NCBI GenBank assembly: GCA_947566705.1
Contig: CANOLA010000028.1
Coordinates: forward strand, 1 to 35,828
Direction: 5' to 3'
DNA from: an uncultured Lachnospiraceae bacterium
GTDB taxonomy: Bacteria > Bacillota > Clostridia > Lachnospirales > Lachnospiraceae
DNA: 35,828 nt
Positions 1 through 20,134 of this stretch are shown piece by piece; the first letter of the stretch is position 1, and the number at the start of each line of letters is the position of its first letter. Below the pieces are notes generated by a model. The model was not told the origin of the DNA and searched no databases. It was given only the letters and a program-made list of their open reading frames with translations. The translations under genes were made by a program, and so were the position numbers.

Positions 1-612
1 ACTCCTAAGATATTCATCATCATTTAATCTTTCAAAAGGATGTCCTGCCTTTAACGTCCTATGACGGTTTCTGTATCCGCGAATGGTCTCATAATTCAGA
101 TCCTGCAACGGAACATCTTCCAGAATTTCCATATCCATAGTACTTTCTGCCTGATCCCGGAGCATTGTTTTTACTTGTAATCTCGTACAACGGTAATCGC
201 CTTCATGATTTCTTCTAAATGTACCACCAAATAAATCATCATTTATATAAATCGGCTTTTCTTCCCTCTTAGCCATTGGTACATATATAACAATGATCAG
301 ATCTCCATTAACATCATAGGTTACAACGTCATCATCGCGTAGAATATTAATATTGATTTTCTTTCGATTATTGACAGTGTCCCAAAATTCTTTAAGTATC
401 TTGCTTTGATCTACTGAATTCAGTCCAGTTGTTCTCCATGAACCAGCCTTGTCTTCAGCTACTCCAAGAATAATAACTCCACCATAACAATTTGCATAAG
501 CGGAATATGTTTCCCACAAAGAAACCGGTAATCCGCCTTTTGCTTTTTTTACTTCTCTTCTGTTGTCTTCTTTGTATGAATCAAATTTTGATATATCAAA
601 TAATTCTGGCAT
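1..612 (-). CDS. AlbA_2/Schlafen-type putative nucleic-acid-binding protein (C-terminus off the window)
   Basis: This is an open frame of 204 codons that begins at ATG 610-612 and is still open at base 1, so the C-terminal part is missing. The N-terminus reads MPELFDISKFDSYKEDNRRE, followed by a KKAKGGLPVSLWETYSAYAN segment and a GGVIILGV strand. An E...K...GGLP...W.T.SAFAN pattern followed by GG.I..GV is the hallmark of the AlbA_2 (divergent AAA_4, Schlafen-related) domain, known from putative transcriptional regulators and defence-associated ATP-binding proteins. Upstream there is an AAAGGGAG ribosome site. It is the last visible gene of the defence island and follows a small membrane-protein gene by about 150 bases. 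The domain call is reasonably firm; the cellular role is unknown. Confidence 0.75.
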   Translation of the reverse strand, partial: MPELFDISKFDSYKEDNRREVKKAKGGLPVSLWETYSAYANCYGGVIILGVAEDKAGSWRTTGLNSVDQSKILKEFWDTVNNRKKININILRDDDVVTYDVNGDLIIVIYVPMAKREEKPIYINDDLFGGTFRRNHEGDYRCTRLQVKTMLRDQAESTMDMEILEDVPLQDLNYETIRGYRNRHRTLKAGHPFERLNDDEYLRS

Positions 613-759
613 TCGGCATCATCTCCCTTTGCAAATCTCCAACAAAACTGTACATTCAGTAGATTGCTTATTATATATTTTGTCATAATCTGTCTGCACA
701 TATACTTTCTCTTTTCTTTCCTGCATACACCTTTTTAATATTATCATCCACACTTTGCT

Positions 760-1299
760 TTATTCTTTCAACATGTCCGCCATTTTTTCCGTAATTAATT
801 TTATTGCATCATGTATTACTTCCACAGCATCTGCTTTAGACCTGTTAATCTCTTCATTTGTCCGGTCATCTACTGGTTTTTCCACGTTATTCTTGTATAT
901 TTCCAAAATATTATCTGCAAAATTTCCTATAACTTCCTTATACTTCTGTATATCAATGTCAAGCCCCATGGACTTATTAAAACTGTCCAGCATATAATAT
1001 GAAGCCAGATTTTTCTCATTAAACTTACTAAGTTCCCCGATAATTTCATTACATTGTTTTTCTCTATCCTCATGCTTACCCAATGAACTATCCACTTTCC
1101 GGGACACCAGCATCATATCGTATTCCATTTCAGCCAGATAATTTATTTCCTTTCGCATATAATCAATTTGTATTTCAATCTTCTTCTGTTTATAATCTCT
1201 CTTTCTTGCAAAATATTCTGCACAGTACACACTTCCAACTGCAATAAACACTGGAATTACTGAATCTGTAAAAAAATCCCACAACAATCCACAATTCAT
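760..1299 (-). CDS. small membrane-anchored coiled-coil protein, unknown function
   Basis: The 179-residue product has one hydrophobic segment near its N-terminus (about residues 10-27, DSVIPVFIAVGSVYCAEYFA). A charged, largely helical region rich in Glu and Lys fills the rest and is probably a cytoplasmic coiled coil. I do not recognise the family. It lies 63 bases downstream of the type III restriction subunit gene on the same strand, so it is probably co-transcribed with the defence genes. Its layout (N-terminal TM plus long soluble helical domain) resembles that of the other island membrane protein at 7115-8112, although I see no sequence similarity between them. A membrane-damaging effector or sensor is conceivable but unproven. 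Confidence 0.6.
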   Translation of the reverse strand: MNCGLLWDFFTDSVIPVFIAVGSVYCAEYFARKRDYKQKKIEIQIDYMRKEINYLAEMEYDMMLVSRKVDSSLGKHEDREKQCNEIIGELSKFNEKNLASYYMLDSFNKSMGLDIDIQKYKEVIGNFADNILEIYKNNVEKPVDDRTNEEINRSKADAVEVIHDAIKLITEKMADMLKE

Positions 1300-1362
1300 A
1301 TTCTATACCTACCTTTCTACTCACAAAATTATTTATCCCTGCAGCCTACGGCCCCAAATACA

Positions 1363-4300
1363 CTAAATTGCATTCATAATCCTAAGCAGACTCTGATAGC
1401 TGTCCACATCATGATACTTAACCTTGCTTGTTGACATCTCATTGAACAGCTTCTTTGCACAAGAAATCTTCGCCTGCTCTATCGGCCTTAAGTTCAGGCT
1501 TTCCATGGTTCCTTTTGTTTCAGCAACAAAGAAAATATGTTTTACCTTACCCTCGTAAAAAGCAATCGCCCAGTCAGGGGAATAATTTCCGACCGGAGTA
1601 GGGATTTGGAATGTCTTTGGGAGTTTAGCATAAACACATACTTCCTCAGCAGCATCCAGATCCTCCACAAATTTTCTTTCAATGCTCTTGTCCGCCGATC
1701 CATCCGTAAATACATAATCCTGAATCGCTTTTTTTGCAAGAAAAGCCTTATCAAAACTCTGTGTATTCTTTCCAGCAGTAAAAATGTCTGAATCATATCC
1801 ACCCTCAATGGTATCATAAGAAATATGTTCGACTATCATTGTGGCTTTCTGCTCGTTGATGAGTTTAATAACCTTTGAAATAAACTCCTCCGGATTATTC
1901 CTGAACATATAGAACTTGTCCTGCCTAATCCCCTGCAGGATTGCTGATACAGTTTTTCGTGTAAGTACCGTCCCCTCTGCCACCTTACCGATAAGGTCAT
2001 ACTTAATCGGGCTTATCTGGTCATGTTTAAGGGTTTTTGTTTTTGACTTTTCTCCTGTGAACGAAGTTCCCCGCCCTACTTCATATTCATTCATTTCTGC
2101 TTTCTGTCTGCCGACTGTCGCTGTGTATTGCAGCTCAGAAACAAAAAGCCTTTCATTAATATGAGAAATAGCTTTCTTTATCAGCTCGCCGCTTTCAAAC
2201 TCTACGGTATAAGCATACTTATGGTTGATTTCTTTCCAGAGAGCCTGAAACTCTTTCTTAGCAAAGTTGTCATTAAGCGGATTTTCCTTAACCTTTGTCT
2301 CACGTCCGTTCGTAAACATCCCCTCCAGAATACTGTCATCATACACCGACTGAATAAGGGTGTGAATACCATCAGCCATAGGCTTTAATTCTTCCGGAAG
2401 CTCCACCACTGTATTCATTGCCACATCAGAACGGTATTTGTCAGTAACTTTTCGCTTTACATCTACATATCCATTCTGAATAAGATAAAACTCAATGGCA
2501 TTTGCAATATTGTCATCAATCAGAACAGACACATCGTTGGCCCTGACATATTTGCCCTTAAAATATTCACTGGCAGCAACCGTTGGTCTGTCGTAAAGGA
2601 CAGTCTTAATATCCGACTGCAAATCAGATACAAAGGTTTTATAGCTCTCGCTTGCAATAACTGTAAGAGTATTGATATCGTGAACAGTTTCTCCGCAGCT
2701 TTGCACATCCATTCGGTTACCGCCCTGATTTACACAAAGCCGGAGTCCACGGCCTATCTCCTGACGTTTTGCCATATTACTGTCGGAATGTTTCAGGGTA
2801 CAAATCTGAAACACATTTGGATTGTCCCAGCCTTCACGGAGCGCTGAATGTGAAAAAATAAACCGTGTCGGTTCGTCAAAGGAAAGCAGCCGTTCCTTGT
2901 TCTTCAAAATCAGGTCATAAGCAGAAATATCATCAGAAAACTCACTTCCACGTTTCAGTTTGCTGTCAATATTTCTTCCGGTCTTTTTATCTATACTGAA
3001 ATATCCCTTATGTACGACACTTACATCACTGCAGACTGATTTCAAGTACTTCTGGTACGGTGTATCCAGCAAAGTAGTATAATCATTAAGAACGCTTAAA
3101 TATTCCTGCTCGAACATTTTACCATATTCCCCAAGTACCTCATCGCCATTTTCATCATACTGACGGTACTTTGCAACCTCGTCAATAAAAAACAGTGACA
3201 GACACTTGATACCCATATTAAAAAGTTTTTCTTCCTTTTCAAAATGAGAAAGAATTGTTTCCCTAATCTGAATACGGCGCATATCCTTTTCAGATACATC
3301 CCCTGTCACATCACCAGTTCTGATAACTTCTCCATTTGTAAACGTTACTGTTCCACTCAATGGATCAATCTCAGAAACCGTATATCCTTTATATTGTTCC
3401 ATCCGCTGGGATACATAATAAAGGTCATCACCCACACCAAGAATACGGGATTCACGATTGACAGATTTATTATATCCAATTTCCATCTCCATTTTAGCCA
3501 TAGGCGGCTTCTTTGCAGACAACACAATTTGCTCAAGATACAAATAGCTGTCCGTCCCCCTGAAGTTTTTAACTTCAAATCCCTTGACCTCTATCTTCTT
3601 AACAAGTTTCTTATTAAAGGCATCCAAAGCATCCAGCACATAGATAAGATTGTGCTGTTTTGCATGAGTAGCCGAGTAATTCAGGCTGAAAAGCGGATTA
3701 AAATTTTTAAGTGCCTTCCTCGTAACATCTCCGCCCATTTTCTGTGGCTCGTCCAGAATAATAATCGGTCTGTTTGCTTTAATAACATCAATCGGGCGGC
3801 GCGAACCGAACTCATCGCGCTTAGAATAGATAATACGGGCTTCCTTGCTTCTACCATCCTCTTTCAGCGAAGACGCAAACGCTTGCGTATTGATTATCAT
3901 TACATTGATACCGGCACTTTGGGAAAAATTATCAAGCTGGTTTAAGTTGGCGCTATTGTATATAAAGAACCTGGCTTTCTTACCATAATGTTCCATAAAG
4001 TGGTCAGTTGTCATTTCAAAAGACTTATACACTCCCTCACGAATTGCAATGCTCGGTACAACAACAATAAATTTACTCCAGCCGTACTTTTTATTCAGCT
4101 CAAACATCGTTTTTATGTACACATATGTTTTTCCTGTACCAGTTTCCATTTCAATATCAAGACTGCATCTGCCTAAATCCTTTACAAGAGAAGGAGAAAT
4201 CTTGATATTGTTCTGACTCTGCAAAGTCTGTATATTCGCCAAAAGCTGCTCATCAGAAAGTTCCAGCACTTCATTCTTATAACCTGTATCATCCATAGGG

Positions 4301-4479
4301 TCATACAGTTCTATTTCTTCCTCTGTCACTCCCAGTGTTATCTGGGAAATATCAGATTTCATTTTGCCGAGGTCACGGATATAATTAATTTTATCATGAA
4401 AGCCTTGTCCGTTAAAAACTTTTACCACGGCGCCAACAGCGTCGGTTTGGTATTGTTGGATTTTAAAATTGAATTTCAT
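1363..4479 (-). CDS. res: Type III restriction enzyme, Res subunit (helicase plus PD-(D/E)XK nuclease)
   Basis: The 1038-residue protein is the normal size for a type III Res subunit. Walker A METGTGKT is at residues 111-118, the DEAD-like motif II is DEPQ at 243-246, motif III SAT is near 269, and the motif VI region QEIGRGLRL lies in the second helicase lobe. The C-terminus carries a PD (968-969)...ETK (987-989) nuclease core. Res works in a complex with Mod, using ATP to communicate between two inversely oriented sites and then cutting DNA. AAAGGTG precedes ATG 4479. In most type III systems res directly follows mod; here about 3.6 kb of other genes lie between Mod (ending 8113) and res, including a Septu-like pair. 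No disruption is seen in the frame. Confidence 0.93.
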   Translation of the reverse strand: MKFNFKIQQYQTDAVGAVVKVFNGQGFHDKINYIRDLGKMKSDISQITLGVTEEEIELYDPMDDTGYKNEVLELSDEQLLANIQTLQSQNNIKISPSLVKDLGRCSLDIEMETGTGKTYVYIKTMFELNKKYGWSKFIVVVPSIAIREGVYKSFEMTTDHFMEHYGKKARFFIYNSANLNQLDNFSQSAGINVMIINTQAFASSLKEDGRSKEARIIYSKRDEFGSRRPIDVIKANRPIIILDEPQKMGGDVTRKALKNFNPLFSLNYSATHAKQHNLIYVLDALDAFNKKLVKKIEVKGFEVKNFRGTDSYLYLEQIVLSAKKPPMAKMEMEIGYNKSVNRESRILGVGDDLYYVSQRMEQYKGYTVSEIDPLSGTVTFTNGEVIRTGDVTGDVSEKDMRRIQIRETILSHFEKEEKLFNMGIKCLSLFFIDEVAKYRQYDENGDEVLGEYGKMFEQEYLSVLNDYTTLLDTPYQKYLKSVCSDVSVVHKGYFSIDKKTGRNIDSKLKRGSEFSDDISAYDLILKNKERLLSFDEPTRFIFSHSALREGWDNPNVFQICTLKHSDSNMAKRQEIGRGLRLCVNQGGNRMDVQSCGETVHDINTLTVIASESYKTFVSDLQSDIKTVLYDRPTVAASEYFKGKYVRANDVSVLIDDNIANAIEFYLIQNGYVDVKRKVTDKYRSDVAMNTVVELPEELKPMADGIHTLIQSVYDDSILEGMFTNGRETKVKENPLNDNFAKKEFQALWKEINHKYAYTVEFESGELIKKAISHINERLFVSELQYTATVGRQKAEMNEYEVGRGTSFTGEKSKTKTLKHDQISPIKYDLIGKVAEGTVLTRKTVSAILQGIRQDKFYMFRNNPEEFISKVIKLINEQKATMIVEHISYDTIEGGYDSDIFTAGKNTQSFDKAFLAKKAIQDYVFTDGSADKSIERKFVEDLDAAEEVCVYAKLPKTFQIPTPVGNYSPDWAIAFYEGKVKHIFFVAETKGTMESLNLRPIEQAKISCAKKLFNEMSTSKVKYHDVDSYQSLLRIMNAI

Positions 4480-4616
4480 TTTTCACCTTTCTTCGTAATG
4501 GTAGCAGCAAGTTACCAGCAAGTTAAATCATGCCCATATGGGTAAATATTTCATATATCCGGGTGCTGTATCTGGTTCAAGCGGTTTGATAACTCCCAAA
4601 TTAACAGTTTCTTTAG

Positions 4617-4861
4617 TCAAGCGCATATTTATTACATTTCTTTTCAAATACAAGAAATTAATGTTTTCAGATACATTTCCTTTTGATCAAGTAAATTTTT
4701 AGTGTCTATACTGTTATCAAGTGCCTCTTGTAATTTCTGAACCATCGAATTGCAATTACGAGCTATTTTATTAAAACATTCACAAAGTTTTGTTTTCCTT
4801 CTTGATAACACTCCATAAAATTAAATTGCACAGTCATTGCAGCCATCACATTTTGACGTAT
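4617..4861 (-). pseudogene. Decayed partial copy of the membrane coiled-coil gene at 7115-8112
   Basis: Bases 4651-4861 align without gaps to 7458-7668, with 16 mismatches in 211 positions counted by eye. Bases 4617-4650 align to 7119-7152 with one mismatch. The copy therefore holds the C-terminal half of the gene, with about 305 bases (7153-7457 of the intact copy) deleted inside it. The original frame is broken: shortly after the CDGCND stretch it meets TAA. The 5' half is absent and the homology stops abruptly at 4861, inside the last codons of the HNH gene. The rest of the gap between res and the HNH gene (4480-4616) holds the res ribosome site and a short tandem repeat of cagcaagtta (4505-4514 and 4516-4525); I see no gene there. 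Confidence 0.85.
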
Positions 4862-5508
4862 TTCTGTAATTCAGGATATTCATTGGCATGTTCACGCACA
4901 TAGCATCTTTTAAATGCCGCAAAAGCAGATTCTCTCCTGAGCAGGCTTTCAATCATCCGCATAATTACTTTAGACTCAGGTTTCTTATGTAACTTTTCAA
5001 GCTGTTTATATAAAACATTCATTTCTTTTTGGAGCAATTTTAATCTCTGATCACTCCTATAAATTCTCATTCCCGTATTTTTTAATGAGAATATCTCTGT
5101 TACCAGTTGCGCCGTTCTCTTTTGAAGTTCATTATCCGCATCCAGTATTGTAATGGTTACATCATCATTCTCTAAAGAAAACGACAAAACCTTTTCAGGA
5201 TCATCTTTACAGCAGTCAAGGATTCCATTATCATATTTACCATTATTTTTTACTCCATTGCAATGACTGCATGACCAGAAAAGATTTTCCCAGTCAAATT
5301 TTCTTTCTGGATATTTCCCATTTTTATGCGGTAATAAATGTTCCACATTTGGATCCTGCAATTCTTTCATCTCACAAATATAACACTTATTATGAAAATC
5401 CTTTTTCAATCTTTCAATCACATCTGGCTTGTCATACTTACCATCTACTTTTCTTGCTTCTTCCGCCAAAGAATCCGGAGCAGGAAACGAGCGTTCTACT
5501 TTAACCAT
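4846..5508 (-). CDS. ptuB: Septu-like HNH endonuclease (PtuB-type)
   Basis: The 220-residue protein has an HNH/zinc core: CYIC at 42-45, EHLLPH at 56-61, FDWENLFWSCSHCN with C80 and C83, and N84. This pattern (KCYICE...VEHLLPH.NGKYP...NLFWSC.HCN) is typical of HNH nucleases paired with ABC-like ATPases in Septu (PtuAB) and in retron-associated modules. It overlaps the upstream ATPase gene by 8 bases, indicating coupled translation. The final codons (YVKM and stop TGA, 4846-4860) lie inside the repeated sequence shared with 7654-7668, so the native C-terminus appears to have been replaced at a recombination joint. Assignment to HNH is firm; assignment to Septu rather than another ATPase-HNH defence pair is probable. 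Confidence 0.85.
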   Translation of the reverse strand: MVKVERSFPAPDSLAEEARKVDGKYDKPDVIERLKKDFHNKCYICEMKELQDPNVEHLLPHKNGKYPERKFDWENLFWSCSHCNGVKNNGKYDNGILDCCKDDPEKVLSFSLENDDVTITILDADNELQKRTAQLVTEIFSLKNTGMRIYRSDQRLKLLQKEMNVLYKQLEKLHKKPESKVIMRMIESLLRRESAFAAFKRCYVREHANEYPELQKYVKM

Positions 5509-6640
5509 CTATATCCTCCCGATTCATAAATTCCAACTTCATCTTTTGATATTCTGTTGTTATTCCTATAGCAAGATAATCCGGCACTTCATCAAGATAA
5601 AGTTCCAGTTCCGCAATTTCACCTATCTCATCATCCGACAGGTTTTCTTTGTATACAAGTTCCTTATACCTGTCAAACTTGTCTCTCAAAGTTTCTGAAA
5701 GCTTATCAACTTTAAAATATCCTTCCACAACGCCTTCATATGGCACGTTACCTAATCCATGTTCCACTAACGTTTGGTTTTCAAAATCGTAAATCGCGGC
5801 ATTACTTATACTGCTCAATATAAATGGAGAATGTGTTGTCACAACAAACTGTATATTGGGGAAAAATTCTGTCAAAAACGGCAAAATGCTTTTCTGTAAT
5901 TCCAGATGCAAATGCGTCTCAATCTCATCAATCAAAACAATTCCGGGAAGATTGAAATCAAACGAACGTTTTGTCTGATGCTGCATACGCATCATGATAT
6001 CCAGCACAATATCCAGTACCGCCTGATACCCACTGGATAAAGTATTGAAGTCAAAAGGTTCCTTTCCCTGCTGCAAAATATGAAATTCAAAAGTTTCTTC
6101 ATCAAATTCCAGCTTTACAGTTTCATCATCAAATATTCGCTTTAAAAGATGCTCTAACTGCATAAACCATGCATGAATTTCATCTGCTTTCTCTATCTTG
6201 TTATTGCTTTTTGCCAGTGCTTCTGTCATTTTTAAATCCAGCAAATATTTCACAAATTCATTGCGCGGAAATTCTGTCAATTCATAACTGTCTTTTAACT
6301 GTACTTTCTCAACATGACTGGGCTGTTCTGCATGAAATACCCTGTCTGCTGTATAATAAGCCAGTATATAGTTATACTTACACGCCAATTCCGGAATACT
6401 GTCAATTTTACTATTAAACTTAATAGCCAACTCTTTTTGGCAATTTTTAAAAGCATTCTCTCTGCTTCCTCTAATAATATCCAGATATCCCGCCATCGCT
6501 TCAACTACGCTTGTCTTGCCACTTCCATTCTTTCCTGTCAAAATTAAATGTCTGATTTTTTCTTCCGACAATGGAATAAAAATATCCTTTAGGTGTCTGA
6601 CTTTTTTAATTGTCAAATTCGTTATAAAAAATTGCTCCAT
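5501..6640 (-). CDS. ptuA: Septu-like AAA/ABC-type ATPase (PtuA-type)
   Basis: The 379-residue protein is an SMC/OLD-like ATPase. Walker A GKNGSGKTS is at 36-44, an ABC-like signature LSSGYQ is at 201-206, Walker B LIDEIETHLH has D238-E239, and the switch segment TTHSPF is at 268-273. No TOPRIM domain is seen after the ATPase, and the partner nuclease is the overlapping HNH gene, as in Septu where PtuA senses infection and PtuB cuts nucleic acid. It is somewhat shorter than many PtuA proteins. It starts 69 bases after a DUF6429 gene, and that gene plus this pair seem to form a cassette inserted between Mod and Res. Confidence 0.82.
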   Translation of the reverse strand: MEQFFITNLTIKKVRHLKDIFIPLSEEKIRHLILTGKNGSGKTSVVEAMAGYLDIIRGSRENAFKNCQKELAIKFNSKIDSIPELACKYNYILAYYTADRVFHAEQPSHVEKVQLKDSYELTEFPRNEFVKYLLDLKMTEALAKSNNKIEKADEIHAWFMQLEHLLKRIFDDETVKLEFDEETFEFHILQQGKEPFDFNTLSSGYQAVLDIVLDIMMRMQHQTKRSFDFNLPGIVLIDEIETHLHLELQKSILPFLTEFFPNIQFVVTTHSPFILSSISNAAIYDFENQTLVEHGLGNVPYEGVVEGYFKVDKLSETLRDKFDRYKELVYKENLSDDEIGEIAELELYLDEVPDYLAIGITTEYQKMKLEFMNREDIDG

Positions 6641-6709
6641 ATCATCCTCCCACTTGATATTGACACTGCTTTGCTATTCAATTTCCCATGTGCATCAATA
6701 TCACCTTAT

Positions 6710-6973
6710 TTACCAATCTGCTACATTATACTTTTCCAGAAGTTCTTTTGCCTTCGCTTCGCCTTCCTTCGTAATGTACATAGATTTTGATCGATGGGAA
6801 CCCTGTCTTATATAATCTTTTTCGTCAAGTTGATTCAATACATCAAAATCATAACCTTTCCATGCATATTTGCCATCTGAATTAGTAAATCTGTCTTTTT
6901 CTGTAAAATGAGATAAGTAAATCAACATCATTGACAATTCTTCCATTGCTGTTTTTGTGTCTGTTTTATCCAT
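6710..6973 (-). CDS. DUF6429-like small protein
   Basis: The 87-residue product is soluble and has the pattern of DUF6429 proteins as I recall it: an N-terminal helix with ELSMMLIYLSHF, then AWKGYDFDVLNQLDEKDYI, then a SKSMYITKEGEAKAKELLEKY segment that looks like the recognition part of a small winged-helix domain. It sits just upstream of the ATPase-HNH pair on the same strand. A role as a regulator or accessory subunit of that pair is inference from position. AAAGGTGG lies upstream of ATG 6973. The family name is from memory of the motif layout, without a database check. Confidence 0.6.
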   Translation of the reverse strand: MDKTDTKTAMEELSMMLIYLSHFTEKDRFTNSDGKYAWKGYDFDVLNQLDEKDYIRQGSHRSKSMYITKEGEAKAKELLEKYNVADW

Positions 6974-7114
6974 CCTAAAATACCACCTTTCAAACTATAT
7001 AATTCCTCTATCAACAAAGTTTCTCGTCAACTTAGCTATCCCTGCTTAAAAGCAGAACTTCCTAGTCAAGCATAGCAACAAATTATGTCCAAACCGGAAT
7101 ATATAAATCTTCAT

Positions 7115-8112
7115 TTAATCAAGCGCATATTTCTTACATTTCTTTTCAAATAATGCGCCATTTTTCATGACATATTCCTTATTTTGTTCAATATAAAAAC
7201 TATATGCATCAAAATACATCATGACAGCATTATACAATTCCATTTTATCATACTTCTGTATATTATTAGCTTCCTCGCGTGCTTGTTTATTTTTTTCACC
7301 AATAACATTTAATGCAGATTGAACCTGCTCGTCAATTGTTTGAATATTTTCTTGCAATTTTAAATATTCTTTTTCAGATTGCTTCATCTTCTCATATATT
7401 TTCTGGTCATTCGGATTCATTGCAAAATAATACTTATATCTTTGAATTTGTTCTTCACAAGAAATTAATGTTTTCAGATATGTTTCCTTTTGATCAAGTA
7501 AATTTTTAGCGTCTATACTGTTATCAAGTGCCACTTGCAATTTCTCAACCATCGAATTGCAATTACGATCCACTTTATTAAAACATTCATAAAGTTTTGT
7601 TTTCTTTCTTGATAGCTCTCCATAAAATTTAATTGCGCAGTCATTACAGCCATCACATTTTGACGTATCAACATAAATATCGGTATTAAGCTTTATGACA
7701 TTCATGGCTTCACGATAATCCGAAAAAATATTAATCAGATTTTTTCGTTCCTCTGATATTGCATTAACATTTTCTATCTTCAAAATTTGAACCATAAAAA
7801 GCAGATCGTCTAATTTATTTACACTTTCTGCTACAACTTCCCGCCGTTTTTCCAATGAATGCAAAAGATTACTTTCCACCTGCAATGCGAATTGCAGCCT
7901 TAATGCTGTCTCCTGGTTTTCATTTCCTTGTTTTATGGTAATAAATAATACCACCAATGTAATAATGCCGCTTATTACCGCGCCCAAAGAGTTCCAATAA
8001 AACTTACAAAATTGCTATTATTTCTAAAAAGAAATGAAATAACAGTAGTACACAAAATCACTATAAGAAAAATTAGTAAACCACCTGCAAAAATTTTACG
8101 TTCTTTTTTCAT
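7115..8112 (-). CDS. Two-TM coiled-coil membrane protein, frameshifted near its N-terminus
   Basis: A 290-codon frame ends at 7115 but has no ATG at its 5' end, only TTG 7985-7987. An ATG at 8110-8112 directly abuts the Mod stop codon (TAA 8113-8115) and opens a frame MKKERKIFAGGLLIFLIVIL... that ends at TAA 7975-7977, overlapping the main frame. One additional C in the CCC run at 7983-7985 would read ...SFIGTLW-GAVISGIITLVV..., joining the two into about 332 residues. The restored protein would have two TM helices (about 8-29 and 44-62), then a helical coiled-coil region with a CDGCNDC cysteine cluster. The family is unknown. Tight coupling to mod suggests it belonged to the same system. The frameshift is either a real lesion or a one-base sequence error. 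Confidence 0.75.
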
Positions 8113-9981
8113 TTATAACACCCTCCTTACTGTATCAGGACTATATGTAGCAAAAATCTGTTCAAAGTTCGTTGCGACACAATCATTTGCCATGGAGCTG
8201 TCACGCATTACAAAGTAATACGGTTTCTGCTTTGCAATTTCAGTGATGACATCTTCCGTTACATTATCATCAAAGCAGGCTATAAGATAATTTTCTTCAA
8301 CATTGAACACTTTCTTACCTGCAATGGTTGTTTCCTCAATTTTGCCTGAAAGCAGAACCCCCAAATCAAGCATAACCTGAAACAGCAAATCTTCCGGTAT
8401 TCTATCCGCTTTGATATTGTCCTCAAGTTTATTAAACAATGACGGCTCATACTCGGCAGGGTTATAGTACACATCTTTCATATTGGAGCTGTCACATTTT
8501 AGTACGCGGAAACCACCGTCAAATTTTGCATCAGGATTTTCTCCTGCAATTTTCTTGGCAGCTCTCCGAATACGCTCTTTGCCAATTTCGCAGATGTTTT
8601 TGTAGCCTGCCTTGTATGCTTCGCTTTTTTCATCAGTTTCCTCGGGTAACTGCACCATAATAAATTTACGGTTTCCATTATCCTCTGCGTTTAACTGCAT
8701 TACTGCGTGGGCAGTAGTAGCAGAACCAGAAAAAAAATCAAGAACAATCGAATCTTTATCACTTCCAATAAGGAACATTTGCTTAATATAACTTACAGGC
8801 TTTGGAAAGTCAAAACATTTTTTGCCATCAAATAGAGCTTTAACTTCTCTTGCTGCGGTTTGATTATGTCCAACTTCCTCACAAAGCCATAAAGTATTTG
8901 GGGTCCTCCCATTCTGAACATCGGATAAAAATCTCTTTTTTCGGGGAAAAGAGTTTCCATCTGCACCAAACCAAATCTGATTATTTGCAACAAGCACCCT
9001 TAGATTATCCTCAGAATAAACCCAATGCTTCCCTTGCGGAACATCAAATTTCTTTCCTGATTTTGGACTGGTAATAATAAAGTGACCGTTACTCCTTTCG
9101 CCACTGGCAACAAGATCACCCGACTGCCACGGTCCACGAGGGTCATTATCGGGATTTTTATAACGCTCATTCATTTCTGTGGTTCGGGGCAACAGATTTA
9201 ATGTAATAGCCTCTATAGACTTTGCATACACATAAGCATATTCATGATTTTCTGAAAAGTATTTTGCATCATTTTTAATACTATGAATCTTCTGCCATAC
9301 AATACAAACCACAAAATTACCTTCTCCAAATATTTCATCGAGAATTTTTTTAATATTTGAGCTTTCATTATCATCAACACTTACAAACAGTAATCCATCA
9401 TCACTTAATAAATCCTTGGCAAATCGAATGCGTGGATAAATCATATTAAGCCAGTCTGTGTGAAAACGTCCATTGTTTTCTGTATTCTGCACAAGTCTAT
9501 TCCCTTCATCATCAAACTGTCCACTATTTTCAAAATATTCATCTATATTTTGAGCAAAATCATCATCAAATACAAAATCATTCCCTGTATTATATGGTGG
9601 GTCTATGTAAATCATCTTAATCTTTCCAAGATAAGTTTCCTGCAACAGCTTCAACACTTCAAGGTTGTCACCCTCAATATAGAGATTCTCCGTATTATCA
9701 AAATCAACACTCTCCTCCCTGCATGGACGCAAAGTTTTGTTTATGGGTGCGTTAGCAAGAAGAACTGACTTCTTTTTGTCAGGCCAGGTAAACTGATAGC
9801 GTTCCTCGTTATCATCAACAACCTTTGTATTGATTTCCTGCATCAGCACATCTTTATCAATTGCCCGAACAACCTCTCCGTTTTCGTCAATCATTTCTGT
9901 AACTGCATTGGGAAACATTTCCGCTAACTTTTTAAAATTCTCATCAGCCTTATTCGCTGTCTGCATCTTAAGTTTGTCCAT
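8113..9981 (-). CDS. mod: Type III DNA N6-adenine methyltransferase (Mod)
   Basis: The 622-residue protein has the beta-class motif order: catalytic DPPYNTGN at 127-134 precedes the SAM-binding motif DFFSGSATTAHA at about 415-426. Between them lies a variable region (about 210-390) that would hold the target-recognition domain, and the FHTDWLNMIYPRI segment follows the catalytic motif. Mod methylates adenine at a short asymmetric site and provides sequence recognition for Res. GGGGGGAC precedes ATG 9981. It follows the HEPN-like gene by 16 bases, and its stop codon abuts the ATG of the next gene at 8112. The reading frame is intact and of normal length. Confidence 0.94.
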   Translation of the reverse strand: MDKLKMQTANKADENFKKLAEMFPNAVTEMIDENGEVVRAIDKDVLMQEINTKVVDDNEERYQFTWPDKKKSVLLANAPINKTLRPCREESVDFDNTENLYIEGDNLEVLKLLQETYLGKIKMIYIDPPYNTGNDFVFDDDFAQNIDEYFENSGQFDDEGNRLVQNTENNGRFHTDWLNMIYPRIRFAKDLLSDDGLLFVSVDDNESSNIKKILDEIFGEGNFVVCIVWQKIHSIKNDAKYFSENHEYAYVYAKSIEAITLNLLPRTTEMNERYKNPDNDPRGPWQSGDLVASGERSNGHFIITSPKSGKKFDVPQGKHWVYSEDNLRVLVANNQIWFGADGNSFPRKKRFLSDVQNGRTPNTLWLCEEVGHNQTAAREVKALFDGKKCFDFPKPVSYIKQMFLIGSDKDSIVLDFFSGSATTAHAVMQLNAEDNGNRKFIMVQLPEETDEKSEAYKAGYKNICEIGKERIRRAAKKIAGENPDAKFDGGFRVLKCDSSNMKDVYYNPAEYEPSLFNKLEDNIKADRIPEDLLFQVMLDLGVLLSGKIEETTIAGKKVFNVEENYLIACFDDNVTEDVITEIAKQKPYYFVMRDSSMANDCVATNFEQIFATYSPDTVRRVL

Positions 9982-9997
9982 TACCCATGTCCCCCCG

Positions 9998-11128
9998 TTA
10001 ATTATTAGATAAATCTATATTTTCCTCAGTTACTTTCTTCGGCTTCAGATTCAAAAGAAAATCTGTCAGTAAAATTGCATTAAGTGCCGCTTTTTGATTT
10101 GGATATTTGGTATACCAGCTATGTGCAACACCGTGCCTATTCGGTACTCCCTCTACAATATCATCAACACTGTAACAAGTGCCAATAATCATATTATTAT
10201 AAAAATCACTAAACACATCATCGTAACCATTTTCATTAATAACTACCTTAATGTCCTTTTTTGGTTTCTTTGTATTCTCTACACCTTTTGACTTTAAAAT
10301 TCCTTCCCACATTGTTGCTAAAAGCGGAATAACCAGAGCATACTCCTTCCGTAAATATGCTTCAAGAGTCTGTCCGAGAGCTTTTTTAACATGCGGCTCT
10401 ATGCCAGACTCTCTCCACTGCCTTTTTATATGCTTTATTTCAGTTTTTGTATAGTAAGATATAATCGCTTTGTCAATTCGCTTTTCACATCTCTTACTCA
10501 TACCACGACTTGACCCTAATATATCATTCACTTCAGCAAAAAGCTGAATATCTGCAATCCACCCAGCATATGGAAACCATTTAGCATCATACATAGCCCT
10601 TAAGTAGATTTCGTTCAGTTCATCATATTTATCTACAAATGCAGAATCAAAATTCCAACTCTCCCATATATGAGTTAAAGGAGAAAAATCAACATCTCGC
10701 AGCCACTCTATAAACGGAGACCTTATAGTTTCCGTCAATAATGACGAGCAATTTGCCAACACACCCTGAATAGAAGTTTTTACCGATGATGCTAAAATAT
10801 TTCTCAACGAACTTGCAATCTGTAAAACCGATGTATCAATATGAAATGATGACATTTTTATAGCTGCCAAACCTATCGGCTCTGCAATATCTCTCACTGC
10901 ATCAAGTGACTGACTGTTCTTAAATGCATCTGCAATTGGAGTGGGTACTTGAACCGCCGATGGCAAATTGCTATTTATAGCCACCATTCTTTCAAGCGGT
11001 TCTGTTATTGATGCATATTGCTGCTGTACCTGAAGAATCGACTGCATACTCTGTTTAATCTCATTACTTTTTTCAATACTTTTTCTTAACTCATCCGATA
11101 TAAGATTATCCGGCTTAAACTCACTCAT
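9998..11128 (-). CDS. Uncharacterised protein with a C-terminal HEPN-like RX4H motif
   Basis: I choose ATG 11126-11128, giving 376 residues, because AAGGAAG lies 8 bases ahead of it; an upstream TTG (11149) is possible but unlikely. The N-terminal half is helical and low in recognisable motifs. The C-terminal region contains EGVPNRHGVAHS with R331 and H336, an R-x4-H arrangement like the catalytic motif of HEPN ribonucleases and ApeA/abortive-infection type proteins, and is followed by a helix ALNAILLTDFLLNL as in that fold. It sits between DUF4391 and Mod in one tight operon, so an RNase toxin or back-up effector for the restriction system is a plausible role. The motif is seen; the activity is inference. 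Confidence 0.65.
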   Translation of the reverse strand: MSEFKPDNLISDELRKSIEKSNEIKQSMQSILQVQQQYASITEPLERMVAINSNLPSAVQVPTPIADAFKNSQSLDAVRDIAEPIGLAAIKMSSFHIDTSVLQIASSLRNILASSVKTSIQGVLANCSSLLTETIRSPFIEWLRDVDFSPLTHIWESWNFDSAFVDKYDELNEIYLRAMYDAKWFPYAGWIADIQLFAEVNDILGSSRGMSKRCEKRIDKAIISYYTKTEIKHIKRQWRESGIEPHVKKALGQTLEAYLRKEYALVIPLLATMWEGILKSKGVENTKKPKKDIKVVINENGYDDVFSDFYNNMIIGTCYSVDDIVEGVPNRHGVAHSWYTKYPNQKAALNAILLTDFLLNLKPKKVTEENIDLSNN

Positions 11129-11149
11129 ACATTCAACTTCCTTCTGCAA

Positions 11150-11767
11150 TTATTTTTCTTTCCCTATCAACATTAATTTCTCCTGATAAGCCCTCATCCT
11201 CTGCACCATCTCATACTTCTTCTTCGGCTGCTTTTCTGCCCTTGCCTGCTTTTCCAGTTTTACTATTTCCATTTCAATCTTCTGTCTTTTTTCATCAACC
11301 GCAATCTGTTCATCAAGCGAATTTCCCTGTTCAATGTTTACAGTGCCTACCGCAACAACAATATTCTCCCATACCCTGTCAAGATTCAGTCCCTGCAGCT
11401 CAATTTTATGTTCTTCCGTAGGTTTCCACTCTGTCTGCATGACCTTTGTATAATAAACGGCAAGTTTGCTTTCACCACCATATTCTAATACAAAGAGATT
11501 ATTCTGCGGAATTAATTTTGAAAGAGTCACAATTGTTTTCTCATCAATGTCCTTCTTTTTCAGCACAACAAGTAAAACAAAAAAATTTTTTACTCGTTCA
11601 CCAGCCGGTATATGAACCTTGTCCGGCGCAATTTCATTTACAATCGTAATTCTTGAAATATCGGCATCAATTTTTTCTTTTGCTGCTGTATTCATTTGAA
11701 ATTTTGAATAAATCGCTTTTTTAGGAAGCTGTTTACTCATTTCAGTTGTTTTCGGTAATCCCAGCAT
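11150..11767 (-). CDS. DUF4391 domain protein of the helicase-Mod operon
   Basis: ATG 11765-11767 is chosen because GAGGTGG lies 5 bases ahead; it gives 205 residues beginning MLGLPKTTEMSKQLPKKAIY. The first 140 residues alternate short strands and helices (IPAGERVKNFFVLLVV, NNLFVLEYGGESKLAVYYTK), and the C-terminal 50 are a charged coiled coil (EMEIVKLEKQARAEKQPKKK). The overall pattern fits DUF4391, a family that I recall next to SNF2 helicases and DNA methyltransferases in bacterial and archaeal defence loci; its biochemical role is not established. It follows the helicase stop by 10 bases and is followed directly by the HEPN-like gene, so all belong to one transcript. Confidence 0.72.
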   Translation of the reverse strand: MLGLPKTTEMSKQLPKKAIYSKFQMNTAAKEKIDADISRITIVNEIAPDKVHIPAGERVKNFFVLLVVLKKKDIDEKTIVTLSKLIPQNNLFVLEYGGESKLAVYYTKVMQTEWKPTEEHKIELQGLNLDRVWENIVVAVGTVNIEQGNSLDEQIAVDEKRQKIEMEIVKLEKQARAEKQPKKKYEMVQRMRAYQEKLMLIGKEK

Positions 11768-11777
11768 TATAACCACC

Positions 11778-14700
11778 TCATTTAACGACAAGAAAGCATA
11801 TCAGTTCAAAATCATCCAGACCTTTAATCTCATTTGCCAGAAAGCTGACCTGACCGCCTCCTAAGAAGCTGTCAATATCGCTCTCATCCTTAATTTCAAT
11901 GATAGAAGCAATCGCTTCGCCAAGCAAATTTGAAAATTTAGACATATCCCTTCCGTCACGAGTTTCCTTGTTGAACTGTTTGTAAACCTCCGGAACAGGC
12001 TCTGTTTTACCTTTACAAAGAAACCGTATTTTGTCAAGCATTTGTTTCGGGGAAAGATGGTCGCATATCACTTTCCCATCATTACTTATATAAACCATAT
12101 AGAATGGGTGAAGCCGGTTCTGGTTATCAATGTTTACACTATCAGAGCGGTTTTTTAAAACAAATATTACACCAGCCGGCGCATCTTCACCTGCCGGAAC
12201 AACAGCGTTAAGCCCAAACGGTGATTTTTCAATATCAGGATGATTTTTTATGTACTCGAGCAAATCAAGCCGGAACTCGTTAAGGCCCAAATCCATAATG
12301 GAAATCCCTGACGACATTTCCTCAATATCAACCACCTCATCCTGCAGCTTCTTAAGCTGTACCTTTCTGTATTCCAGATCGGTCTTTTCCTCATCACTTA
12401 AAATATTGTCATCAGCCGTTGCGGTCATATCAACAATTTTCATTCTTGTTTCAACTTTGGCTTTGAGATTGATATAATCATCAAGAGTTACATCAGGCCA
12501 GAAGTTGACAAGCTGTATCACTTTATTTCTGCTGCCAATACGGTCAATTCGCCCAAAACGCTGGATAATACGCACCGGATTCCAATGGATATCATAATTA
12601 ATAAGATAATCGCAGTCCTGTAAATTCTGCCCTTCGGAGATACAGTCGGTTGCAATCAAAATATCAATATTCTCTTTCGGCATACTGTCAAATAAATCTC
12701 TATCTTTAGATATCGGTGAAAAGCAGGTAAGCACAGTATTCAAATCGCTGTGCAGTTTCGGGCAGGTCGTACGTCCGTCAACCGAACCAGTTACCATGGC
12801 AGAATCCAGGCTGTATTTATTTTTTACATACTTGCTGACATTATCGTATATATATCCGGCAGTATCTGCAAAAGCGGTAAATATAATAATTTTTTTATTT
12901 CCATCGTTAATTGGGTGAGCTATTTTATCATCAATTACACGATAAAGTTCCTGCAATTTAGAATCGTGTTCCGGCGTGATATCTCCCACCATATAAGTCA
13001 GAAGTCCAAGAACCTCTGCGTCTTTTACAAGGCTTTCCCGCCAGGATACATAGTCCATATCGGCAAGATTTATTTTCACTTTCCTGCCAAAGGAAAAAAG
13101 GTCATCTGTATTCTGGTCTTCATCGTCAAACTCGTCCACATTTGAGATATCTGTTAAGTCAAGACAGCTGTCAAATTGGTCAATGGTATTAATCGTGCTT
13201 TCAATCAACTCTTTAATGCGTTTTAATGTAAGATTAAAGGAATATACCGAGCTTTCCATTCGCTTCATCAAATTGATAGCAGTAAGTCTGCGGATTCCCT
13301 GCTCACGATTAGCCTGTGTAAATCCGACATTAACCTTGTTGTCTCCGTATAATTCTGCATACTTCTCCATTTTACTCGGTAATATGTAATGCGTAGGCGT
13401 GTAAATTGTAAGTGCCAGAAGCATAAGCTGCTCAAAAATCTCATTATAATTGATTGCTTCTTTCAGGTCTGTAAGATGCGGCCGCAGCGAAACAGGCTTT
13501 AACCTTGTCGGGAATGTACCCACATCGCTTGTATCGTAATACTTCTGAATGTGTTTTCTTGAACGCGCTATGGTAACGCTGTCCAGAACCTCGAAAAAAT
13601 CAAAATCCAGCATTTTGAGAAGATTTTCAGTCGTTCTGTCACAAAGCTCCCATTTGCTCCACGTATTAAATGCCCTCTGTGCATTTTTAAATATATCATC
13701 AATCGAACGGTTTGTATTCAGTTTGTCATCAATGTAGTCCGTATGCCCCTCATATGCAAGGGCAAGCTGATTTTTCAAATCAAGGAATTTATTATTGACT
13801 GGAGTAGCTGAAAGCATAAGCACTTTTGTTTTTACGCCAGCACGGATAACCTTTTTCATTAGGGTTACATAACGATTATCCTTTTCATTTTCATCCGGAT
13901 TTTCAACTATCTTTCCACCGTTTCTAAAGTTATGGGATTCATCAATAACCACAAGGTCATAGTTTCCCCAATTGATTCTTCCTAAATCTATACCGTTTGA
14001 TGTCCCCATCGTTCTGTTTAAGTCCGTATGGTACAGCACATCATAACGCAGACGGTCGGAAGCAATCGGGTTGTTAATATAGTTTTCTTTATATGTATTC
14101 CAGTTATTTGCCAGCTTTTTAGGGCATAGCACAAGAACGGATTTGTTTTTATTTTCATAATATTTAATTACAGACAGAGCCGTAAATGTTTTACCCAGAC
14201 CTACACTGTCAGCAAGGATACAGCCGTTATATTTCTCAAGTTTATTAATAATTGCAAGTGCCGCATCCTTCTGGAAATTATAAAGCATACTCCAGATTTT
14301 ACTGTCCTTAAATCCGGTTGCTTCATTGGGAAGGACATCCTCTGAAACATCTTCAAGAAATTCATTAAAAATATTATAAAGGGTGAAAAAATAAATAAAA
14401 TCCGGAGAATTTTCGTTATATGCTGCAGTTATGTTCTCAATCACTTCGTCCGTGACCTCCTGCAGTACGTTTTTGTCATTCCAAATCTCATCAAAATCTC
14501 TTACCAGTGCCTGAGCCAGCGACTGGTCTTTTACAATCGCGGTGCTGATTACATTTCCTTTTTCACATCCAAGCTCAACTGTTGTAAAATGATTGATTGG
14601 TGTATAGCCAATGTCATCAACAACCATTTGTCCCTGAATTGTTTTTTCACTTATGTTAGATTTGAATGTAACCTTTTCTTTTATCCAGTCTGCACATTCT

Positions 14701-15005
14701 TTTGCTATAGCCTTTTGAGTCATTTCATTTCTCAGTTTTATCTCAAACTCAGTTCCGTAAAGGCTACGCTCACGGTTCAGGCGTGGTATGTAAAACTCCC
14801 TTTTCTCTTTCTTTGTTTTTTCGGCAACAAAGGTGGGGGAGGTAAAAATGAAGCGCAATTCATCAATCGAAGTGAGCTGTTTTTTCAACTCCTGAAATGC
14901 ATAAATTGAAAAGCATGCCGCCGCTATTGACAGTTTGCTCCCTTTTTTAATTTCTACAGATAAATCTTCTCCAAGGGTTTTCGTCGTATTGTTAATAAGC
15001 TCCAT
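11778..15005 (-). CDS. SNF2-family helicase with N-terminal PLD-like region
   Basis: Helicase motifs are clear: GLGKT at about 269-273, DESH at about 355-358, a LMLSATPVNN motif III, and in the second lobe ATDCISEGQNLQ and QRFGRIDRIGS. The first 170 residues (KLSIAAACFSIYAFQELKKQ, then RFIFTSPTF) resemble the N-terminal phospholipase D-like domain of this group of helicases, but I see no HxK catalytic motif. I start the gene at ATG 15003-15005 (1075 residues) because a promoter occupies 15064-15092 and therefore excludes the longer frame opening at 15092. It is the first gene of the defence operon. Helicases of this kind translocate on DNA in DISARM-like and related systems; here the partners are DUF4391 and a type III Mod. 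Confidence 0.85.
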   Translation of the reverse strand: MELINNTTKTLGEDLSVEIKKGSKLSIAAACFSIYAFQELKKQLTSIDELRFIFTSPTFVAEKTKKEKREFYIPRLNRERSLYGTEFEIKLRNEMTQKAIAKECADWIKEKVTFKSNISEKTIQGQMVVDDIGYTPINHFTTVELGCEKGNVISTAIVKDQSLAQALVRDFDEIWNDKNVLQEVTDEVIENITAAYNENSPDFIYFFTLYNIFNEFLEDVSEDVLPNEATGFKDSKIWSMLYNFQKDAALAIINKLEKYNGCILADSVGLGKTFTALSVIKYYENKNKSVLVLCPKKLANNWNTYKENYINNPIASDRLRYDVLYHTDLNRTMGTSNGIDLGRINWGNYDLVVIDESHNFRNGGKIVENPDENEKDNRYVTLMKKVIRAGVKTKVLMLSATPVNNKFLDLKNQLALAYEGHTDYIDDKLNTNRSIDDIFKNAQRAFNTWSKWELCDRTTENLLKMLDFDFFEVLDSVTIARSRKHIQKYYDTSDVGTFPTRLKPVSLRPHLTDLKEAINYNEIFEQLMLLALTIYTPTHYILPSKMEKYAELYGDNKVNVGFTQANREQGIRRLTAINLMKRMESSVYSFNLTLKRIKELIESTINTIDQFDSCLDLTDISNVDEFDDEDQNTDDLFSFGRKVKINLADMDYVSWRESLVKDAEVLGLLTYMVGDITPEHDSKLQELYRVIDDKIAHPINDGNKKIIIFTAFADTAGYIYDNVSKYVKNKYSLDSAMVTGSVDGRTTCPKLHSDLNTVLTCFSPISKDRDLFDSMPKENIDILIATDCISEGQNLQDCDYLINYDIHWNPVRIIQRFGRIDRIGSRNKVIQLVNFWPDVTLDDYINLKAKVETRMKIVDMTATADDNILSDEEKTDLEYRKVQLKKLQDEVVDIEEMSSGISIMDLGLNEFRLDLLEYIKNHPDIEKSPFGLNAVVPAGEDAPAGVIFVLKNRSDSVNIDNQNRLHPFYMVYISNDGKVICDHLSPKQMLDKIRFLCKGKTEPVPEVYKQFNKETRDGRDMSKFSNLLGEAIASIIEIKDESDIDSFLGGGQVSFLANEIKGLDDFELICFLVVK

Positions 15006-15063
15006 ATCCTCATGCCCCTTCATCTTATTGCCATGTTTCACATAACCGGATTCAACTGTAAAA

Positions 15064-15092
15064 AGTATACCATTCCCCAAGTATTTTATCAA
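15064..15092 (-). promoter_or_regulatory. Sigma-A-type promoter of the defence operon
   Basis: Read on the minus strand this is TTGATA (15087-15092), a 17-base spacer, then TATACT (15064-15069): five of six matches to consensus in each box. It would start transcription near 15057 and leave a leader of about 52 bases before ATG 15005. The position rules out translation from the ATG at 15092, which lies in the -35 box. Confidence 0.7.
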
Positions 15093-19986: not shown

Positions 19987-20134
19987 ATCCGCACCTCCAT
20001 CCATTGAACATTATTTATTTTTATATTAACACAAACGGTATGCAAAATGAACATCTTTTTCTACTGGAATAATTTCTGAAACTGTGATAAAATTTTTAAA
20101 AGCGATAGAAAAAAAATAAAGAGGACAAACAACC

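What the first reader, a model, noticed from the sequence alone, without database searches (positions are those of the whole stretch)
1363..15092. Extended type III restriction locus: SNF2 helicase, DUF4391, HEPN-like protein, Mod, membrane protein, Res
A single promoter precedes a tightly spaced chain of helicase, DUF4391, RX4H protein and Mod, with Res further on. Classical type III systems need only Mod and Res. The extra helicase plus DUF4391 plus RNase-like protein look like dedicated partners, giving a candidate composite system with DNA recognition by Mod, DNA tracking by the helicase and a possible abortive RNase or membrane effector. I do not know a named system with this set.
Basis: partly seen in the sequence, partly recalled or inferred. 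Interest (0 to 1): 0.8.

Follow-up and report, generated by a model that had tools for sequence, protein, structure and literature searches.

The report
Type III restriction core with plug-in defences
A bacterial DNA-cutting defence of a known type carries two extra conserved partner genes and two fixed positions where different anti-virus genes are swapped in and out; in this genome those positions hold a probable RNA-cutting enzyme and a second known defence called Septu.

Summary
On the minus strand: SNF2 helicase, DUF4391, HEPN-like protein, type III Mod, a membrane coiled-coil gene (frame broken), DUF6429, Septu PtuA and PtuB, type III Res. Helicase-DUF4391-Mod-Res is a conserved four-gene core: of 56 DUF4391 loci examined, 55 have the helicase, 55 Mod and 49 Res, and every miss lies where the fetched sequence ends. 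The HEPN, Septu and membrane genes are not core. They sit in two positions (DUF4391/Mod, Mod/Res) where relatives carry TIR, SIR2+HerA, OLD, AbiJ, RloB, PrrC-like, Schlafen, RhuM, Fic and others, or nothing. Near-identical loci differ in these inserts and in the central part of Mod: exchangeable cassettes. Core catalytic motifs are intact; the helicase's PLD-like N-terminus lacks the HKD site. Best reading: type III restriction with a dedicated helicase-DUF4391 pair and plug-in backup effectors. The anatomy is shown; the pair's role and any coupling of cargo to the core are inferred. Toxin genes inside type I and III loci were noted in 2012; nine searches of an open-access library gave no paper on this four-gene core.

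The parts
15064..15092 (-). promoter-like site before the helicase
   Evidence: TTGATA-17-TATACT with TG; best-scoring group of the scan but no excess over shuffles
11778..15005 (-). CORE: SNF2-family helicase with PLD-like N-terminal domain that lacks the HKD site
   Evidence: Pfam SNF2-rel_dom and Helicase_C; PADLOC C3a139 'HKD+Snf2' 421.9 bits over nearly the whole length; alignment of 35 rows; start codon chosen by me
11150..11767 (-). CORE: DUF4391 protein
   Evidence: Pfam PF14335, 105.7 bits; start codon chosen by me
9998..11128 (-). SLOT 1 cargo: HEPN-like protein, RX4H motif NRHGVAHS
   Evidence: no Pfam, PADLOC or NCBIfam match; motif seen and shared with L007
8113..9981 (-). CORE: type III Mod (adenine-type N6_N4 methylase, DPPY motif)
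   Evidence: PADLOC MTase_III 1.4e-235; EcoP15I Mod among solved relatives
7115..8112 (-). SLOT 2 cargo: membrane plus coiled-coil gene, reading frame broken
   Evidence: no Pfam, PADLOC or NCBIfam match for the 290-aa part
6710..6973 (-). SLOT 2 cargo: DUF6429 protein, 87 aa
   Evidence: Pfam PF20008 5.1e-25
5501..6640 (-). SLOT 2 cargo: Septu ATPase PtuA
   Evidence: PADLOC PtuA 3.6e-114; solved PtuA chains among relatives
4846..5508 (-). SLOT 2 cargo: Septu HNH nuclease PtuB
   Evidence: PADLOC PtuB 1.1e-87
4612..4861 (-). relic of the membrane gene 3' part, a direct repeat that brackets DUF6429-PtuA-PtuB
   Evidence: repeats D1 (212 nt, 92%) and D2 (39 nt, 95%)
1363..4479 (-). CORE: type III Res (helicase plus PD-ExK nuclease)
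   Evidence: PADLOC REase_III 1.7e-285; Pfam RE_endonuc; EcoP15I Res is the only solved relative found
760..1299 (-). small membrane protein downstream of Res; membership uncertain
   Evidence: no Pfam or NCBIfam match and only a weak DruC match, E 0.0005
1..612 (-). Schlafen AlbA_2 domain gene, cut by the window edge; membership uncertain
   Evidence: Pfam PF04326 2.3e-09

Best explanation
A type III restriction-modification system whose conserved core is four genes, not two: SNF2 helicase, DUF4391, Mod and Res. SHOWN: conserved order, intact catalytic motifs, inserts at two fixed positions, exchange of inserts and of the central part of Mod between near-identical loci. INFERRED: Mod methylates the host's sites and guides Res to cut unmethylated DNA; helicase and DUF4391 work as one unit, a DNA-tracking motor plus an adaptor, that is needed for restriction or reports on it; the slot genes (here a HEPN-like RNase and Septu PtuAB) are backup effectors that stop an infected cell when a phage blocks or escapes the core, as PrrC does for EcoPrrI. 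Cassettes are exchanged by homologous recombination through the DUF4391 3' end, the ends of Mod and the Res side.
For: Core present in 55/55/49 of 56 loci with misses only at sequence ends; helicase and DUF4391 overlap or are at most 20 nt apart in 52 of 55, and only 1 of 55 has a gene between them, against 21 of 55 in slot 1 and 12 of 49 in slot 2 (p 1.2e-6 and 5.5e-4). Same four genes in 6 of 6 E. coli loci read. Helicase, Mod and Res motifs invariant. Core protein identities correlate, Spearman 0.76-0.88, not corrected for shared ancestry. Cargo matches known defence families. Exchange footprints. PrrC precedent and toxin genes in type I and III loci: PMC12707154 and PMC3506569, passages.
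Against: No experiment. About half of the loci with both slots readable carry no cargo (23 of 49 have some, with L035 dropped), so cargo is not needed. Two loci keep Mod and Res intact with only helicase fragments (L041, L051) and four uncut loci of the same Res groups lack DUF4391 (L052, L053, L057, L061), so Mod/Res can persist without the pair. The slot 2 rate does not differ significantly from DUF4391-less type III loci (12 of 49 against 1 of 11, p 0.43). DUF4391 has no known fold or activity (structure prediction was off).
Confidence: 0.45

Rival explanations
1. Four-gene type III system whose inserts are unlinked passengers: the operon is a safe, expressed landing place for self-sufficient defence genes, with no functional coupling to the core.
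For: Septu, SIR2-HerA, TIR and OLD-type genes are known as stand-alone defences (recalled; PADLOC lists them as systems of their own). Inserts vary freely among near-identical cores and many loci have none.
Against: Placement is restricted to two of the three junctions, and cargo is mostly co-directional and tightly packed, for example L017 and L023.
Confidence: 0.35
2. Helicase and DUF4391 form a separate two-gene defence system that merely travels with a type III system.
For: They are inseparable (52 of 55 within 20 nt or overlapping), and Mod/Res can be found without them.
Against: No helicase-DUF4391 pair without Mod and Res was seen among the loci with enough sequence; the order is the same on plasmids of Actinomycetota and Pseudomonadota.
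Confidence: 0.15
3. Chance neighbourhood in a defence island.
For: Defence genes cluster; DUF262, WYL and Schlafen genes lie near some loci.
Against: Fixed order and spacing in 56 loci from Bacillota, Bacteroidales, Spirochaetia, Actinomycetota and Pseudomonadota records.
Confidence: 0.03

Closest known systems
Type III restriction-modification (EcoP1I, EcoP15I)
   Same: Mod and Res of the same families with intact DPPY, helicase and PD-ExK motifs
   Different: Two further conserved genes (helicase, DUF4391) and cargo slots; Res falls in other groups of the tree than EcoP1I Res, though the order of the three deepest groups is unresolved
PrrC inside the EcoPrrI type I locus, and other toxins in type I and III loci (Makarova 2012)
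   Same: Toxin-like genes nested in a restriction operon and replaced repeatedly (PMC3506569 and PMC12707154, passages)
   Different: Type III core with a helicase-DUF4391 pair and two defined slots; coupling not shown here
BREX and BREX-related loci with auxiliary effectors (2026)
   Same: SNF2 helicases, some with an N-terminal HKD domain, and backup effectors in the loci (PMC12839542, passages)
   Different: No type III Res or DUF4391 mentioned there (0 occurrences of both terms); here the HKD site is lost
DISARM
   Same: SNF2 helicase distantly like DrmD (146 bits, cut-off 610)
   Different: Score far below the cut-off; no DrmB or DrmC match among the ten window proteins scanned (lists capped at 25 for four of them)
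Septu
   Same: Complete ptuA-ptuB pair in slot 2
   Different: Nested between mod and res of another system

Membership tests
Type III restriction-modification | Mod with DPPY-type N6/N4 methylase and Res with helicase plus PD-ExK nuclease, adjacent genes | tested here: met
   Families and motifs met; Mod and Res are in one operon but in the window separated by slot 2 genes
Type III restriction-modification | ATP-dependent cutting from two head-to-head unmethylated sites and methylation of one strand | not testable with these tools
   needs biochemistry or methylome
Septu (PtuAB) | ABC-type ATPase PtuA followed by HNH nuclease PtuB | tested here: met
   best PADLOC E-values 3.6e-114 and 1.1e-87; Walker A and HNH-type residues read
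DISARM | DrmD helicase at family score, with DrmB and DrmC | tested here: not met
   DrmD 146 bits against cut-off 610; no DrmB or DrmC match seen
PLD (HKD) nuclease-helicase | HxK(x)4D catalytic motif in the N-terminal domain | tested here: not met
   not present by eye in 35 aligned rows; L012 keeps H and K but not D; motif recalled
PrrC-like restriction-coupled effector | effector held by and released from the restriction complex | not testable with these tools
   only gene placement is known
HEPN RNase (slot 1 protein) | RX4-6H motif in a helical domain | tested here: inconclusive
   motif shared by window and L007, but no Pfam match and no structure model

The most novel reading that the evidence does not exclude
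Helicase plus DUF4391 turn a type III restriction enzyme into a sensing platform with two effector sockets: DUF4391 and the ends of Mod are docking points, so that one recombination event between conserved crossover sites re-arms the system with a new toxin and a new DNA specificity.
Probability: 0.3. Interest if true: 0.82.

Novelty: new variant of a known kind. Interest (0 to 1): 0.62.

Why it matters
In the sampled phylum 27 of 56 strong Res-domain matches (86 bits or more) lie beside DUF4391, 17 more are cut at contig ends, and only 6 lack it with intact Mod and Res (counted by hand). The same four genes lie on E. coli chromosomes and plasmids. If the extra pair is required, much of what is counted as plain type III restriction is a different machine. 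The fixed slots give a natural list of candidate effectors, several without a known family, and near-isogenic natural pairs for testing whether restriction systems and abortive effectors are coupled, a hypothesis in print since 2012.

Tried and rejected
Active PLD nuclease in the helicase: rejected, no HKD site in 35 rows. DISARM: rejected. HEPN as a core gene: rejected, only the window and L007. Viral contigs: two scans, no relative confirmed. Phage collection: 2 unverified fecal records; one was read (L088) and has the core. Slot 2 excess over DUF4391-less type III: not significant. A single Res clade that excludes EcoP1I: not supported, the three deepest groups are an open fork. In one search the profile step failed for the membrane, DUF6429, PtuA and PtuB proteins because no relatives were in the fetched loci. 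L035 was counted by script as slot 1 cargo but its ORF is the broken DUF4391 itself, so I dropped it. L041 and L042 are not among the 56 because only DUF4391 fragments remain.

Full report
WHAT IS THERE. All these genes lie on the minus strand. In order of transcription: SNF2 helicase, DUF4391, a 383-aa HEPN-like protein, Mod, a membrane coiled-coil gene, DUF6429, PtuA, PtuB, Res. Mod and Res match PADLOC type III models over nearly their whole length (1.4e-235 and 1.7e-285); EcoP15I Res is the only solved relative found for Res and EcoP15I Mod is among three for Mod. A partial copy of the membrane gene, 92-95% identical, lies between ptuB and res, so the DUF6429-PtuA-PtuB insert is bracketed by repeats of its neighbour, which suggests a recent insertion. 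The membrane gene's frame is broken. A promoter-like site stands before the helicase, but such sites occur here at the shuffled rate.

IS THE SET CONSERVED? DUF4391 was sought in 398 genomes of the phylum: 34, the window's own included, had it, with 37 matches. I fetched 35 regions covering the 36 matches other than the window's, six loci from named genomes, 14 of the 39 matching plasmid records, one of two phage-collection records and one same-genus locus. Layouts were made with profiles built from the first of these loci. The table holds 56 loci: the window and all of the above except L041 and L042, where only DUF4391 fragments remain. Of the 56, 55 have the helicase upstream, 55 Mod and 49 Res downstream; each miss lies where the fetched stretch, contig or record ends. 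Helicase and DUF4391 overlap or are at most 20 nt apart in 52 of 55. Some loci are near copies (L044/L045, L049/L095), six were found by likeness to the window, and a few have broken core genes (L017, L033, L035, L040, L049, L091). Seen from the helicase, 33 matches reach 230 bits to the PADLOC model (a limit I chose; 8 weaker rows were left out) and 30 of them lie beside a DUF4391 match; of the other three two are at contig ends and one is a longer protein without Mod or Res hits nearby. Among 60 close relatives only the window's genome and one other have DUF4391, which suggests horizontal acquisition.

E. COLI. A distant DNA search with an E. coli plasmid helicase matched 87 of 5426 complete E. 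coli genomes, 10 of them over at least 80% of the query; some of the rest match only a few per cent of it. I read six loci: all six have helicase, DUF4391, Mod and Res annotated in this order, Mod being split by an insertion sequence in one (L097).

RES GROUPS. In a quick tree of 63 Res (long branches flagged) the 38 DUF4391-linked Res fall in two supported groups of 16 and 39 rows; EcoP1I Res with L067 and L068 forms a third. The order of these three is not resolved, so a single DUF4391 lineage is not shown. Inside the two groups four uncut loci lack DUF4391 (L052, L053, L057, L061), two keep only helicase fragments (L041, L051), and 11 rows are contig-cut and uninformative. The link is typical, not universal.

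CARGO. Between DUF4391 and Mod 22 of 55 loci hold a co-directional ORF of 90 aa or more; one (L035) is the broken DUF4391 itself, leaving 21. Between Mod and Res it is 12 of 49; between helicase and DUF4391 1 of 55 (Fisher p 1.2e-6 and 5.5e-4 against that junction; loci are not independent). Of 49 loci with both slots readable 23 carry cargo. Pfam on 30 cargo proteins matched 24: TIR (2), SIR2 (2), HerA (2), AAA_21, RloB, DUF4145, an AAA_13 ATPase, OLD-type nuclease (2), DUF2130, KilA-N, AbiJ, RhuM (3), Fic/Bro-N, AlbA_2 (2), PDDEXK_3, trypsin-like, YobI ATPase; 6 had no match. PADLOC on ten of the 30 gave SIR2, a TIR candidate (PDC-S66), a PrrC-like candidate (PDC-S06), GajA and Old as best matches for five; five had none. 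Later loci add a UvrD-like protein, AAA with DUF4276, a sub-threshold TIR and DUF2971. One unnamed cargo, in L002 slot 2, shows an HExxH peptide in its sequence. Control: of 11 DUF4391-less Mod/Res loci (L052, L053, L057, L061, L067, L068, L074-L078, some distant or with Res before Mod) one, L052, has a gene (RhuM) between Mod and Res. Against 12 of 49 this is not significant (p 0.43), so slot 2 insertion may be shared with plain type III loci; slot 1 exists only here.

CASSETTE EXCHANGE. Two genomes (L026, L029) are about 95% identical over 5.5 kb through helicase and nearly all of DUF4391 and again over 7.3 kb from the Mod 3' part through Res and beyond, but show no match in slot 1 or in the central part of Mod. 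The same pattern holds between a Citrobacter and a Raoultella plasmid (95% flanks; OLD+DUF2130 against a UvrD-like gene) and among three E. coli chromosomes (90-92% flanks); in one, ABU 83972, slot 1 is an internally deleted copy of the UvrD-like cargo. Between an Aeromonas and the Raoultella plasmid the cargo with the start of Mod is 86% identical while the helicase side and Res are 75%, so the cassette moved apart from its neighbours. Among near copies Mod is usually the least alike core protein (only pairs with helicase over 70% or Res over 75% were listed).

MECHANISM. Shown: the key residues of Walker A, DExH and motif VI are invariant in 45 helicase rows (two of them other SNF2 helicases, L052 and L078), Mod DPPY in 53 of 53, Res Walker A GKT in 60 of 60 and PD and ExK in 59 of 59; these rows include DUF4391-less and contig-cut loci. 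The helicase's N-terminal domain aligns with the 'HKD+Snf2' model, but I saw no HKD site in 35 rows, so it looks like a motor without that nuclease. Inferred: Mod marks self and guides Res; the inseparable helicase-DUF4391 pair moves along DNA and supports or monitors restriction; slot genes act when the core is blocked. The last step follows the PrrC-EcoPrrI precedent (PMC12707154 and PMC3506569, passages). I rate the anatomy at about 0.95, a functionally required helicase-DUF4391 pair at about 0.65 and coupling of cargo to the core at about 0.4.

KNOWN OR NEW. That type I and III loci hold toxins such as HEPN and Sir2, repeatedly replaced, is in Makarova 2012 (passages); backup effectors in BREX loci are in a 2026 paper (passages). 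The name DUF4391 occurs in one paper of the library, as a table line. Eight further searches listed no paper that I could recognise as describing the four-gene core. I saw passages of six papers and only listings of the rest; most subscription papers and preprints are not held, and a paper using other names could be missed. PADLOC-DB 2023 has a model for the helicase (C3a139) and none that matched DUF4391; which system it files the helicase under is not visible here. I call it a new variant of a known kind.

Noticed in passing
L069 (own genome, G000:C34) 4733-5478 and 6468-7135: The same genome holds a second, decayed piece: the res 3' part (96% to window 1317-2014) joined to the short stretch before res (window 4487-4536), with an AlbA_2-like gene 93% alike to window 1-667 nearby; upstream lie a methyltransferase and a PLD-helicase.
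   Followed up: partly
L004 10743-18174: Two mod genes in tandem with a 100-aa res start piece between them, as if a second mod-res had recombined in.
   Followed up: no
L085 2712-6453 with L015 (one genome, two contigs): A mod stands upstream of the helicase on one contig and another follows DUF4391 on the second, so this genome may hold two mods for one core.
   Followed up: no
L052 1946-8742; L057: Mod/Res of the same Res groups without DUF4391 stand downstream of a different SNF2 helicase; in L052 a 1279-aa gene without Pfam match lies between.
   Followed up: partly
L048, L093, L096, L097, L098: A WYL or helix-turn-helix regulator gene directly abuts the helicase in enterobacterial loci; L099 has one annotated as MADS protein MAD1.
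   Followed up: no
window 15129-16826 and 18292-20004: Two copies of an AAA-ATPase_like plus PDDEXK_9 gene upstream of the operon.
   Followed up: no
L049 11280-12506; L091 8142-17145; L097 19403-20554: Insertion sequences interrupt mod or lie between core genes in three annotated loci.
   Followed up: no
L041 13468-19890; L057 9811-16364: Genes beside two DUF4391-less Mod/Res loci look by eye like type III CRISPR RAMP genes; not tested.
   Followed up: no
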